Source: Chelativorans multitrophicus
GTDB taxonomy: Bacteria; Pseudomonadota; Alphaproteobacteria; Rhizobiales; Rhizobiaceae
Direction: 5' to 3'
DNA length: 64,000 bases
Assembly: GCF_011317445.1 (NCBI RefSeq)
Contig: NZ_JAAAPL010000002.1
Span: 682,001 to 746,000 of the forward strand
Below are positions 22,082-51,337 of the stretch, piece after piece. The notes under the pieces were generated by a model. The model was not told the DNA's origin and searched no databases. It saw only the letters and a program-made list of their open reading frames with translations. The number at the start of each line of letters is the position of its first letter. The stretch's first letter is position 1. Both the position numbers and the translations under genes were made by a program.

Positions 22082-22171
22082 GAAAAGGCTCCCATTGGAA
22101 ATAGGCGCAGACGCAGAAGCGGCGTCTTGCAGCAAAGATTGGAATGTCGGGGATAAGAAGGGGAGAGAAGT

Positions 22172-22499
22172 GGAGGCTTCTGTTGCCAGGTGCCTCCGAA
22201 CCCCGCTCAGGCCTGCGACGGCCTGAGACTTGAATTGAAGCTATCGCGCTGCATTAAGCAGCGAGACGTGCTTCCGCATAGTTGTCGTTGGCAACTATAA
22301 GGTTCGGTCCGATAACGGTGGTACCATGCCGAGCGAAAGTCCGATCTTTACACCCTCGTCGATCCTATTTCGCCCCCATCAGAAGCCGCCCTTCGCATCG
22401 CATGGGCCGGCGGTTTCTGGTGGAGGCGCCGGGTACCGCCCCCGGGTCCGAATGGCTTATTGCATCGTCCGTTTATCGCCATAGTCGGCCGAAACCGAC
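22172..22499 (-). ncRNA. ssrA: Transfer-messenger RNA, two-piece circularly permuted form
   Basis: On the minus strand a small open frame at 22254-22292 encodes ANDNYAEARLAA followed by TAA, the proteolysis tag known from rhizobia. The coding piece begins at 22377 with GGGGGCGAAATAGGATCGAC, matching the 5' end of tmRNAs. Upstream of it in the gene lies the acceptor piece, whose 3' end CGCCTCC plus ACCA is at 22418-22428. GGGGGCG pairs with CGCCTCC, so the two pieces form the tRNA-like acceptor stem across the permutation. The roughly 40 bases between 22378 and 22417 would be removed. The coding piece ends near the hairpin at 22172-22197. Exact mature ends are inferred. The RNA rescues stalled ribosomes with SmpB. 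Confidence 0.93.
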
Positions 22500-22505
22500 A
22501 GACCC

Positions 22506-22534
22506 AATATAGGCATGAGATCCGGCCGATGAAA
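22506..22534 (-). promoter_or_regulatory. Likely ssrA promoter
   Basis: On the minus strand TTTCAT (22529-22534) and TATATT (22506-22511) are 17 bases apart, and initiation would fall near 22499, at the start of the acceptor piece. The -10 box is a near-consensus match; the -35 box is weak. Confidence 0.5.
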
Positions 22535-22663
22535 GGGGGGGCGGCCGTCTTACAGCGCCATTTTTCGTTGACTTCTCGATACCTTGCACCGAAGGTCAGC
22601 CTGCGGGGGCGCCCGGGGGACGGGTGCTGGTCGGGCGGGTAGCACGGAGAGGAAGGATTTCTC

Positions 22664-48815: not shown

Positions 48816-49247
48816 ATGACGGTCAAAGCCATACTGGATACCAAAGGGCGCGATGTGGTGACGATCGCGTCGGAGAAGACATTGAGGGAGGCGGTCGAAC
48901 TTTTGACAGAGCGGCGCATCGGCGCCGTGGTGGTGATGGATGGCGCAGGGCGCATCGGCGGCATCCTTTCCGAACGCGATATCGTTCGGGCGCTCGCGCG
49001 TGAGGGCGCTGCGGCCCTCGATATGGCAACTTCAGCTTTTATGACGGCCAAGGTGAAGACGTGCCGCGAAAGCCACACCGTGAACGAGGTCATGCAGATC
49101 ATGACGCAGAGCCGCTTTCGCCACCTACCGGTCTAGGAAAGCGGACAGTTGGTCGGCATCGTCTCGATCGGTGACGTCGTGAAGCGGCGAATCGAGGAAG
49201 TGGAACGCGAGGCGGAGGAGATCCGTACCTATATAGCGACGGCGTGA
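48816..49247 (+). pseudogene. CBS domain protein, interrupted by an in-frame amber codon
   Basis: The frame starts with an ATG at 48816 after a good AGGAGGAG site and encodes a pair of CBS domains (VVTIASEKTLREAVELLTER and CRESHTVNEVMQIMTQSRFRH). At codon 107 (49134-49136) a TAG follows RFRHLPV. The same frame continues for 36 codons, ESGQLVGIVSIGDVVKRRIE and EVEREAEEIRTYIATA, then a normal TGA. The second part is what the family shows at this place, so the TAG replaces a sense codon, probably CAG, AAG or GAG. The truncated product lacks the end of the second CBS domain. It may be a real nonsense mutation, a sequencing error, or a suppressed codon. Confidence 0.85.
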
Positions 49248-49285
49248 AGAGAGGCCGCCGACCTGACGGCAGCCTCGGTTTGTCT

Positions 49286-49543
49286 TCAACGATTGTCGGT
49301 TTGCGAACGGACGAGCTGTAGGCCCCGCCGCGTGATACGGTAAGGACCACCGTTCGTCGAAGCGATCGCACCTTTGCGTTTGACCTTGCGAAAGAGGGCG
49401 AGGTCCAAGCCAGGCAAATGCCACCCATCGCGGGTGACACAGGAAATTTCGGCGATGCGGCCGTCCTCGTCCTTTTCAACCTGGATGCACCCGCCTTGAG
49501 CCAAAATATGAAGAATGCGCTGTTCCGCGCGTGAGATGTCCAT
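49286..49543 (-). CDS. YjhX family toxin-like protein
   Basis: This is an 85-residue protein with the pattern of the YjhX family: MDISRAEQRILHILAQGG, ISCVTRDGWHLPGLDLALF and NGGPYRITRRGLQLVRSQ, ending in DNR. YjhX in E. coli is named as a toxin, but little is known and no partner antitoxin is visible here. The start at 49543 follows AGGA by six bases, and this gives the family N-terminus. The upstream leader (49544-49680) holds an 8-codon reading frame and several hairpins. It converges with the broken CBS gene. Confidence 0.8.
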   Translation of the reverse strand: MDISRAEQRILHILAQGGCIQVEKDEDGRIAEISCVTRDGWHLPGLDLALFRKVKRKGAIASTNGGPYRITRRGLQLVRSQTDNR

Positions 49544-49562
49544 TTCTGATCCTGGAAACCTG

Positions 49563-49678
49563 TGGCGCACACGCGCCAAAACACGTCGCCGCGCAGCCTG
49601 AAAGGCAGCGCGGGGCTCAGGTTCAGCCCTGGCCCGAAGGGGCGCAGGGCCTCAGCAGGTTTCCAGTCTGGTAGACAT
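49563..49678 (-). promoter_or_regulatory. Structured leader with hairpins before the YjhX-like gene, attenuator-like
   Basis: On the minus strand the leader begins with the short reading frame at 49652-49678 and then forms several stems. Stem 1 lies at 49626-49650 (GCCCTG/CAGGGC with an inner GCCC/GGGC). Stem 2 lies at 49613-49629 (AGCCC/GGGCT) and shares four to five bases with stem 1, so the two cannot coexist. Stem 3 lies at 49589-49613 (CCGCGC/GCGCGG with an inner GCC/GGC). Stem 4 lies at 49563-49578 (TGGCGC/GCGCCA). No uridine run follows stem 3, so it is more likely translational or Rho-type control than a classical terminator. Regulation itself is inference. Confidence 0.5.
49652..49678 (-). 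CDS. Putative 8-residue leader peptide upstream of the YjhX-like gene
   Basis: The frame MSTRLETC followed by TGA lies on the minus strand, with GGAG at a spacing of five bases (49684-49687), so a ribosome should start here. It ends directly before stem 1 of the leader structure. The peptide has arginine (AGA), threonine and a final cysteine codon, but no run of a single amino acid, so the sensed signal is not obvious. It is much shorter than a normal gene; the support is the strong start signal and its place before the hairpins. Confidence 0.45.
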   Translation of the reverse strand: MSTRLETC

Positions 49679-49837
49679 CAAAACTCCATCTGCGGGCAGC
49701 GCTCATAGCGCGATTTAGCGGCTTGCGAAAGCCTTGAGCCTTGTCAGGCTGCCGCGATTGTTTTAGCGAACACGGCTGTAGTTACGTCGTAGCGAAACCC
49801 GCTACATGTTTCTCCCAGAATCCGACTGCATGGACCC

Positions 49838-51337
49838 ATGACAATCATCGATACGCGCACGCCCGATCCAAAGCGGCTCATTCCCGGCGCCACCGGAGAC
49901 TGGGAAGTGATCATCGGCATGGAAATCCATGCCCAGGTGACGTCTCGCGCGAAGCTCTTTTCCGGCGCCTCTACTGAGTTCGGCGCCGAGCCAAACGCCA
50001 ATGTTTCGCTGGTGGACGCGGCCATGCCCGGCATGCTCCCCGTCATCAACGAGGAATGCGTGAAGCAGGCGATCCGCACCGGGCTTGGGCTGAAGGCGCA
50101 GATCAATCATCGCTCCGTTTTCGACCGGAAGAACTATTTTTATCCGGACCTGCCGCAGGGCTATCAGATCTCGCAATACAAGCAGCCGATCGTGGGTGAG
50201 GGGATCGTAATCGTCTCCGTCGGCCCGGCCAAGGACGGCAGCTTTGAGGAGATCCAGGTCGGCATCGAGCGCCTGCATCTGGAGCAGGATGCGGGCAAGT
50301 CGCTGCACGACCAGCACCCGACCATGTCCTATGTGGACCTGAACCGCTCCGGCGTGGCGCTGATGGAGATCGTGTCCAAGCCGGACATGCGCTCCGCCGA
50401 TGAGGCGAAGGCCTTTCTCACCAAGCTGCGCAGCATCCTGCGGTATCTGGGGACCTGCGACGGCAATATGGACGAAGGCTCCATGCGTGCGGACGTGAAC
50501 GTGTCGGTGCGCCGGCCGGGCGAGCCCTTCGGCACGCGTTGCGAGATCAAGAACGTAAATTCGATCCGCTTTGTCGGCCAGGCGATCGAATCGGAGGCGC
50601 GGCGGCAGATCGCCATTCTCGAGGACGGCGGCGCGATTGACCAGGAGACGCGGCTTTTCGATCCCGGCAAAGGCGAAACGCGTTCGATGCGCTCGAAGGA
50701 AGAGGCGCACGATTACCGCTACTTCCCCGACCCGGACCTTGTGCCGCTCGTTTTCGACCAGGCCTATGTGGATGCACTTGCCGCCGAGCTGCCGGAGCTT
50801 CCGGACGAGAAGAAGGCGCGCTTCATGGCGAGTTTCGGCCTGTCCGAATACGATGCTTCTGTACTCGTCGCGGAGAGGGCGACCGCCGCGTATTTCGAGA
50901 AGGTCGCGGCCGGCCGCGACGGCAAAGCGGCGGCGAACTGGGTGATCAACGATCTTTTAGGTGCCTTGAACAGGACAGGAAAAGATATTGAAGATACACC
51001 GGTTTCTCCCGATCATCTTGGCACGATCATCGACCTGATCAAGGACGGCACGATCTCTGGAAAGATCGCCAAGGACCTGTTCGAGATCGTCTGGAACGAG
51101 GGCGGCGACCCGGTAAGGATAGTGGAGGAGCGGGGCCTGAAACAGGTGACCGACACCGGTGCCATTGAGAAGGCGGTGGACGAGGTAATTGCTGCCAATC
51201 CGGACAAGGTGGAACAGGCGAAGGCTAAGCCAACGCTCGCTGGCTGGTTTGTCGGCCAGGTGATGAAGGCGACCGGCGGCAAGGCCAACCCGCAGGCCGT
51301 CAACGCGCTGGTGAATCAAAAACTAGGGATCGAATGA
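49838..51337 (+). CDS. gatB: Aspartyl/glutamyl-tRNA(Asn/Gln) amidotransferase subunit B
   Basis: GatB, with GatA and GatC, converts misacylated Glu-tRNA(Gln) or Asp-tRNA(Asn) to the correct form. The 499-residue product has the N-terminal kinase-like domain with [40 protein letters not shown] and [20 protein letters not shown], and a helical tail and YqeY-like domain ending in [13 protein letters not shown]. The ATG at 49838 gives the usual leader with [20 protein letters not shown]. gatA and gatC are not in this window. It is divergent from the YjhX-like gene. Confidence 0.96.

What the first reader, a model, noticed from the sequence alone, without database searches (positions are those of the whole stretch)
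49544..49687. Attenuator-like leader with an 8-codon upstream frame before a YjhX-type gene
The leader of the YjhX-like gene holds a short frame (MSTRLETC, stop) with an almost ideal Shine-Dalgarno GGAG at five bases, followed immediately by four stems. Stems 1 and 2 share bases and so exclude each other. This is the arrangement of classical attenuators, where the ribosome on the leader peptide chooses the structure. No known leader peptide of this sequence is familiar to me. The target is a toxin-like gene, so it could be a way to keep it silent or to make it respond to a translation signal.
Basis: partly seen in the sequence, partly recalled or inferred. Interest (0 to 1): 0.72.

Follow-up and report, generated by a model that had tools for sequence, protein, structure and literature searches.

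The report
Leader peptide switch for bacterial toxin
A tiny eight-codon reading frame ahead of a topoisomerase-inhibitor gene is base-paired to that gene's start site, so a ribosome that stalls on it should switch the gene on; it looks like a divergent relative of a switch described in E. coli in 2025 and recurs before this gene in many alphaproteobacteria.

Summary
On the minus strand an 8-codon frame (MSTRLETC, ATG 49678, stop to 49652) with GGAG five bases away starts 135 nt before a yjhX gene (49543-49286; PF09857, E 1e-38). YjhX is TopAI, a topoisomerase I inhibitor in E. coli. A 2025 paper (PMC12121999) proposes that E. [quoted passage not shown] antibiotics stalling ribosomes on toiL release topAI. 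The window leader has the same layout. An exactly 8-codon frame occurs in 120 of 159 yjhX loci (shuffles: mean 1.2, maximum 4). Compensatory changes exceed shuffles, though the uORF:start-site helix P1 is the least well kept. Own uORF:start-site pairs bind better on average than swapped ones. In silico, a ribosome on the uORF lowers the cost of opening the yjhX start by about 5 kcal/mol on average; shuffling the uORF removes this. No Rfam family matches. It differs from toiL in peptide, in lacking a neighbouring yjhQ antitoxin and in sitting beside gatB. Translation attenuation is the best reading; transcription attenuation is not supported. The inducing signal is inferred.

The parts
49286..49543 (-). 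yjhX / topAI-like gene, 85 aa
   Evidence: PF09857 E 1.2e-38; 46% identical to E. coli TopAI
49652..49678 (-). toiL-like uORF, MSTRLETC plus TGA
   Evidence: 8-codon uORF in 120 of 159 yjhX loci; MSxxxETC in all 10 full-length yjhX loci of the genus
49684..49687 (-). uORF Shine-Dalgarno GGAG, 5 nt from ATG
   Evidence: nearly invariant columns in the 23-leader alignment
49550..49553 (-). yjhX Shine-Dalgarno AGGA, 6 nt from ATG; its first two bases lie in P1
   Evidence: by eye
49656..49666 (-). P1 5' strand CTGGAAACCTG, inside the uORF
   Evidence: MFE; cognate duplex -27.8 kcal/mol, better than with all but 4 of the 95 foreign start sites
49552..49562 (-). P1 3' strand CAGGTTTCCAG, reaching into the yjhX SD
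49673..49679 (-). P0 5' strand, uORF start codon region, pairs with 49541-49535
   Evidence: P0 cells 90-100% paired in 65 leaders, but only one of its six pairs has double changes, so it is weakly tested
49535..49541 (-). P0 3' strand: last base of the yjhX start codon and the next codons
49626..49650 (-). P2 hairpin, just after the uORF stop
   Evidence: double changes
49589..49613 (-). P3 hairpin
   Evidence: double changes
49563..49578 (-). P4 hairpin
   Evidence: double changes
49618..49624 (-). GAACCTG, possible competitor of the uORF for 49562-49556 (P1b)
   Evidence: by eye; a helix at this place (GAAAACC/GGTTTTCC) is kept in relatives
49702..49729 (-). weak promoter-like pair TTCGCA-16-TATGAG, putative
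   Evidence: 8 of 12 matches; not found by the stricter scan

Best explanation
It is a toiL-like translation attenuator of an alphaproteobacterial topAI (yjhX) gene. When ribosomes pass the 8-codon uORF freely, its RNA is free most of the time and pairs with the yjhX start site (P1 and P0, closing P2-P4 into a multibranch fold), so yjhX is barely translated. When a ribosome stalls on the uORF (antibiotic, slow initiation or slow termination), it covers the 5' strand; the released 3' strand refolds, in the window perhaps with 49624-49618, and yjhX is translated. Shown here, by sequence and computation only: anatomy, conservation, covariation, better-than-swapped pairing, computed release by a ribosome on the uORF. 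Inferred: that the uORF is translated, that the yjhX protein is made on stalling, which stress acts, and that Rho ends untranslated transcripts as proposed for E. coli.
For: 8-codon uORF in 120 of 159 yjhX loci against at most 4 in 100 shuffled sets; 7-9 codons in 134 of 155 after dropping 4 loci with broken genes. uORF with own start site -21.4 kcal/mol on average, permuted -17.93 (sd 0.34), none of 10000 permutations as low (minimum -19.32). Ribosome blocks at P-sites 0 to +24 of the uORF lower the start-site opening cost by 4.3-5.1 kcal/mol on average; P-sites at -18 or further upstream, or from +36 on, by 1.3 or less (60 of 96 leaders); the best gain lies inside the uORF in 47 of 60. Shuffling only the uORF drops the opening cost from 10.36 to 5.57 and the gain from 4.85 to 0.07; 89 of 96 leaders, p 2e-16. 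Covariation: 316 double-changed cells in 65 leaders against 84.3 (sd 9.2) shuffled, 0 of 500. All 65 locus matches (12 of them the training leaders) and all 5 genome matches of the model abut yjhX. E. coli gives MLENVIIR at -139 by the same search, as the paper describes, and its uORF binds its own start site better than any of 95 others.
Against: No expression data. In the window, per-base accessibility is mixed: the yjhX SD is unpaired 0.50 when free and 0.39, 0.28, 0.93 with a ribosome on codon 1, 5, 8; only the joint opening energy falls at every position tested inside the uORF. For E. coli toiL itself, the known case, the computed gain is small and not confined to the uORF (2.1-2.7 inside, 2.3 at +36 and +72, 3.0 at -6). 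In 13 of 60 leaders a block outside the uORF does as well or better. P1 is the least well-kept helix (72.5% of cells paired in 65 leaders, against 88-100% for the others). The own start site was the best of all for only 4 of 96 uORFs (median rank 18). 31 of 96 leaders were not matched by the model at E 0.01. On the 12-leader alignment one measure (further pair types) was reached by 26 of 500 shuffles.
Confidence: 0.8

Rival explanations
1. Classical transcription attenuation: the ribosome on the leader chooses between a terminator and an antiterminator.
For: Alternative pairing exists (49624-49618 against the uORF for 49562-49556), and S. meliloti has a tetracycline-responsive uORF attenuator of another gene (PMC12218461; abstract and section 6 read).
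Against: No terminator-like site on this strand in 49200-49900; the pairing ends in the yjhX SD and first codons.
Confidence: 0.07
2. Translational coupling: the uORF feeds or opens yjhX by ordinary passage of ribosomes or by reinitiation across the compact fold, not by stalling.
For: P0 and P1 bring the uORF next to the yjhX start; several relatives have no clear SD before yjhX (by eye).
Against: The toiL authors presume that toiL is efficiently translated in the repressed state (PMC12121999); 108 nt separate the uORF stop from the yjhX start, far for reinitiation (general knowledge).
Confidence: 0.1
3. The structured DNA belongs to gatB on the other strand, or is chance GC-rich folding, and the small frame is incidental.
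For: The plus strand folds even better against shuffles (z -4.95); gatB lies divergently in 86 of 159 loci.
Against: Of the 73 loci without a gatB hit there, 61 have a 7-9 codon uORF, 51 of them exactly 8; uORF length and place are kept; G-U cells outnumber A-C cells 182 to 81 on the yjhX strand (the alignment was made on that strand, which leans the same way).
Confidence: 0.03

Closest known systems
toiL uORF of topAI-yjhQP, Escherichia coli (PMC12121999)
   Same: Same controlled gene family, 8 codons, 135 against 139 nt before the gene, uORF pairs with the start site, hairpin(s) between.
   Different: Peptide MSTRLETC, not MLENVIIR; no yjhQ or yjhP found beside the gene; beside gatB; no functional data.
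Translation attenuators of the ermC/ermB kind
   Same: Stalled ribosome on a short uORF frees the start site of the next gene (comparison drawn in PMC12121999, passage).
   Different: Different gene; no resistance role known.
sORF26-duf1127 attenuator, Sinorhizobium meliloti (PMC12218461)
   Same: Alphaproteobacterial uORF that monitors translation, tetracycline-responsive (abstract).
   Different: 29-aa uORF, transcription termination between uORF and gene, C-rich codons; a search of the main text for toxin, topoisomerase, gatB, YjhX and toiL found none.

Membership tests
toiL-topAI leader | Downstream gene is topAI/yjhX | tested here: met
   PF09857 E 1.2e-38
toiL-topAI leader | 8-codon uORF about 139 nt upstream with SD | tested here: met
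   8 codons, -135, GGAG
[quoted passage not shown]
   Computed only:
toiL-topAI leader | First seven residues of ToiL conserved | tested here: not met
   MSTRLETC against MLENVIIR shares only Met1; 19 of 77 distinct 8-codon uORF sequences have Glu3, as E. coli has
toiL-topAI leader | topAI-yjhQP operon | tested here: not met
   No YjhQ-like hit directly downstream in the window's locus; 16 of 159 loci have one, none of the 86 gatB-linked (tblastn with two queries, E 1e-3)
toiL-topAI leader | Induction by ribosome-targeting antibiotics through the uORF | not testable with these tools
   Needs a reporter
toiL-topAI leader | Rho-dependent termination inside the untranslated gene | not tested
   Inferred from E. 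coli only
Transcription attenuator | Terminator hairpin with U run between uORF and gene | tested here: not met
   None on this strand (simple consensus scan)
Any Rfam family | Match at gathering score | tested here: not met
   None in the leader or in the loci of 15 relatives
Type II toxin-antitoxin TopAI-YjhQ | Antitoxin gene beside the toxin | tested here: not met
   unlinked YjhQ-like matches at 31-36% identity exist elsewhere in the genome

The most novel reading that the evidence does not exclude
The leaders without Glu3, common in alphaproteobacteria, are a second sensor class: Ser/Thr-rich 8-codon uORFs tuned to other ribosome inhibitors than E. coli toiL, notably chloramphenicol-like drugs that stall after Ala, Ser or Thr, and they control an antitoxin-less TopAI that serves not as a toxin but as a brake on topoisomerase I, tying DNA supercoiling to translation stress beside gatB.
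Probability: 0.25. Interest if true: 0.72.

Novelty: new variant of a known kind. Interest (0 to 1): 0.55.

Why it matters
It turns a single E. coli regulator, published in 2025, into an RNA element that recurs before yjhX across alphaproteobacteria, with a constant 8-codon frame, covarying stems and a replaced peptide. The 73 distinct 8-codon peptides found here (77 distinct nucleotide sequences) are a natural panel for asking which residues decide which antibiotic stalls the ribosome. It also suggests that many of these bacteria answer translation stress by inhibiting topoisomerase I without a linked antitoxin, which questions the label toxin for these genes.

Tried and rejected
Known RNA family: rejected, no Rfam match at gathering score; the four weak matches (best E 0.22) lie on the other strand and far below their cut-offs. 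gatB leader on the plus strand: rejected, see rivals. Terminator: none on this strand. Amino-acid-specific attenuator (Cys or Arg): judged unlikely, since the last residue varies (R 61, C 10, L 4, A 1, F 1 of 77); Arg is however common and encoded by several codon types. The first MAFFT alignment of 23 leaders was too poor for P1 (16 pairs predicted, P0, part of P2 and of P3); a narrower 12-leader alignment with a structure that I set by hand from one leader's fold was used instead. Those 12 leaders built R1, so 53 of its 65 matches are independent of it, and its alignment leans towards the structure. The genome search with R1 used strict filters and found 5 of 199 genomes, fewer than carry yjhX (51 of 249), so it speaks for specificity, not frequency. 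One search aligned loci before they were oriented and was not used for conclusions.

Rows dropped: of L001-L173, before, 2 loci with partial gene matches (L172, L173), 2 with too little upstream DNA (L081, L140) and 10 duplicates; after, 4 loci whose yjhX frame is broken (L106, L119, L125, L138; they had contributed four of the eleven 7-codon frames). Loci are unevenly sampled (many Mesorhizobium). 96 less redundant leaders served, the first 60 of them.

Amino-acid coherence: identity exceeded column-shuffled codons at 6 of 7 positions (at most 27 of 2000 shuffles as high); codon 7 did not (105 of 2000). Relatedness was not controlled, so I lean little on it. Promoter-like pairs, mostly ending near -23 of the uORF: at least 9 of 12 matches in 14 of 96 leaders against 1% of base shuffles; the window's own is weaker (8 of 12).

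Literature: searches for YjhX, UPF0386, toiL with uORF, topAI with leader, S. meliloti uORF terms, alphaproteobacteria leader terms, S. meliloti small proteome and 'YjhX family toxin'. In the listings I saw no paper on an alphaproteobacterial yjhX leader; most listed papers were not opened, and subscription papers and supplements were not searched. The eLife figure supplements, which may show more species, were not seen.

Full report
What is there. The minus strand of the window carries an 85-aa gene, 49543-49286, that matches PF09857 (YjhX_toxin) over all 85 positions at E 1.2e-38. Its 5' leader holds GGAG, five bases, and the frame MSTRLETC-stop (49678-49652), starting 135 nt before the gene. 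The leader folds better than any of 200 shuffles (z -3.75). The uORF's CTGGAAACCTG (49666-49656) is an exact 11-base complement of CAGGTTTCCAG (49562-49552), which runs into the yjhX Shine-Dalgarno AGGA (49553-49550); the uORF start region (49679-49673) also pairs with the first codons of yjhX (49541-49535). Three hairpins lie between (P2 49650-49626, P3 49613-49589, P4 49578-49563). A second stretch, GAACCTG (49624-49618), can pair with the same 3' strand and so competes with the uORF (by eye).

What the gene is. E. coli YjhX is TopAI, an inhibitor of topoisomerase I paired with the antitoxin YjhQ (PMC4666372: abstract, section list and passages seen). The window protein is 46% identical to it in the alignment.

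The decisive comparison. Baniulyte and Wade (PMC12121999; abstract, passages, sections 10 and 22 and the first part of the Discussion seen) found that E. coli topAI is controlled by toiL, an eight-codon uORF starting 139 nt upstream. [quoted passage not shown] In the E. coli DNA I read the same element: MLENVIIR at -139.

Conservation. The leader DNA is recognisable in 6 of 61 genomes, the window's own included, all in one genus; three of the other five are named Chelativorans (loci L070, L071 and L073 duplicate L004, L003 and L006). yjhX itself occurs in 11 of 16 genus genomes. All 10 full-length copies have an 8-codon uORF of the form MSxxxETC; the eleventh copy (G005) is frame-broken. yjhX was found in 60 of 151 family, 51 of 249 order and 32 of 349 phylum genomes (the draws overlap). 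Over 159 distinct loci from these searches, from the named scan and from plasmid and E. coli records, 120 have an ATG uORF of exactly eight codons with an SD-like motif at -185 to -95; 100 dinucleotide-shuffled sets gave a mean of 1.17 and a maximum of 4. Other lengths are rare (seven codons 11, nine codons 9, others 7). After dropping four loci with broken genes, 134 of 155 have 7-9 codons; several of the other 21 have an 8- or 9-codon frame with a weak SD or a GTG start, some have none that I could see.

Structure and coevolution. On 12 leaders the proposed structure has 89.4% of cells paired and 26 double-changed cells, against 8.0 (sd 2.3) when shuffled; further pair types were reached by 26 of 500 shuffles. 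A covariance model from them matched 65 of 96 loci, always at the yjhX start. On these, 316 double-changed cells against 84.3 (sd 9.2), covariation score 0.320 against 0.125, no shuffle of 500 as high; sliding the partners by 1-3 columns gives at most 65 such cells. P2, P3, P4 and P1b have double changes at most of their pairs; P0 at one of six. P1, the helix of regulatory interest, has them at 4 of 8 pairs and is the least well kept (72.5% of cells paired); its register seems to slide between clades. An alignment-free test supports it: in 96 leaders the uORF binds its own start site at -21.4 kcal/mol, against -17.93 (sd 0.34) for random partners in 10000 permutations, minimum -19.32; but the own partner was the single best for only 4 of 96. 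The model found 5 of 199 order genomes, each once, each directly before yjhX, so no scattering before unrelated genes was seen.

Mechanism in silico. I blocked a ribosome-sized stretch at successive places and computed the cost of opening the yjhX start (-15 to +3). Over 60 leaders, P-sites 0 to +24 of the uORF lower the cost by 4.3-5.1 kcal/mol on average; those at -18 or further upstream, or from +36 on, by 1.3 or less; the flanks at -12, -6 and +30 are intermediate (2.9-3.7). The best gain lies inside the uORF in 47 of 60. For the window the cost is 15.4 and falls by 7.6-10.7 for P-sites 0 to +24. For E. coli toiL the gain is small and not confined to the uORF (2.1-2.7 inside, 2.3 at +36 and +72), so this computation is a poor predictor for the one case with experiments. 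Shuffling the uORF alone (four shuffles per leader) lowers the mean cost from 10.36 to 5.57 and abolishes the effect (4.85 to 0.07); 89 of 96 leaders go this way, p 2e-16. Single-base accessibility in the window is not clean: the SD is unpaired 0.50 when free and 0.39, 0.28, 0.93 with the ribosome on codons 1, 5 and 8.

How it differs from toiL. Among 77 distinct 8-codon uORF sequences (73 distinct peptides), 19 have Glu3, 12 of them of the form MLE(I/L/N)V, E. coli included; 58 lack Glu3 and are as a class Ser/Thr-rich, with Ser+Thr at 42% of codons 2-8 against 9% in 48 long stop-free stretches of the window; 41 of the 58 have three or more Ala/Ser/Thr. Ser codons (UCN) may partly serve pairing with GGA near the yjhX start, and many of the 58 are related. 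The paper suggests that E. coli toiL's lack of chloramphenicol response comes from its lack of Ala, Ser and Thr codons, and that tylosin stalls at Val5, lost on change to Leu; the window has Leu5, Ser2, Thr3 and Thr7. YjhQ-like genes lie directly downstream in 16 of 159 loci, in none of the 86 where gatB lies divergently beside yjhX, as here. Distant YjhQ-like acetyltransferases exist elsewhere in the genome, so an unlinked antitoxin is not excluded.

Verdict. Unproven: expression, the inducing stress, and the function of YjhX in these bacteria.

Noticed in passing
window 48816-49248, + strand: A CBS-domain-like gene (name from memory, no domain search) convergent with yjhX seems to carry an in-frame TAG at about 49134, with the same frame reading on after it (by eye).
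   Followed up: no
L016, L034, L117 upstream of yjhX: These leaders lack a clear uORF SD but have a TTGAC(G/C)-17-TA box (9 of 12 matches) ending 6-7 nt before the uORF ATG, suggesting a leaderless uORF.
   Followed up: partly
L106, L119, L125, L138 and L190 (G005): yjhX copies with a broken frame near the 5' end, suggesting that the gene is lost in some lineages.
   Followed up: partly
window 22169-22538, - strand: Alphaproteobacterial (permuted) tmRNA gene, Rfam RF01849, E 1.3e-87.
   Followed up: no
L039 2501-3237: Agrobacterium plasmid copy: uORF MFTIAGNR, yjhX and a GNAT acetyltransferase gene 11 nt after it, so a linked pair also exists in Rhizobiaceae.
   Followed up: partly
86 of 159 yjhX loci: yjhX lies divergently beside gatB, a gene of glutaminyl/asparaginyl-tRNA formation (function from general knowledge), a possible link to translation.
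   Followed up: partly
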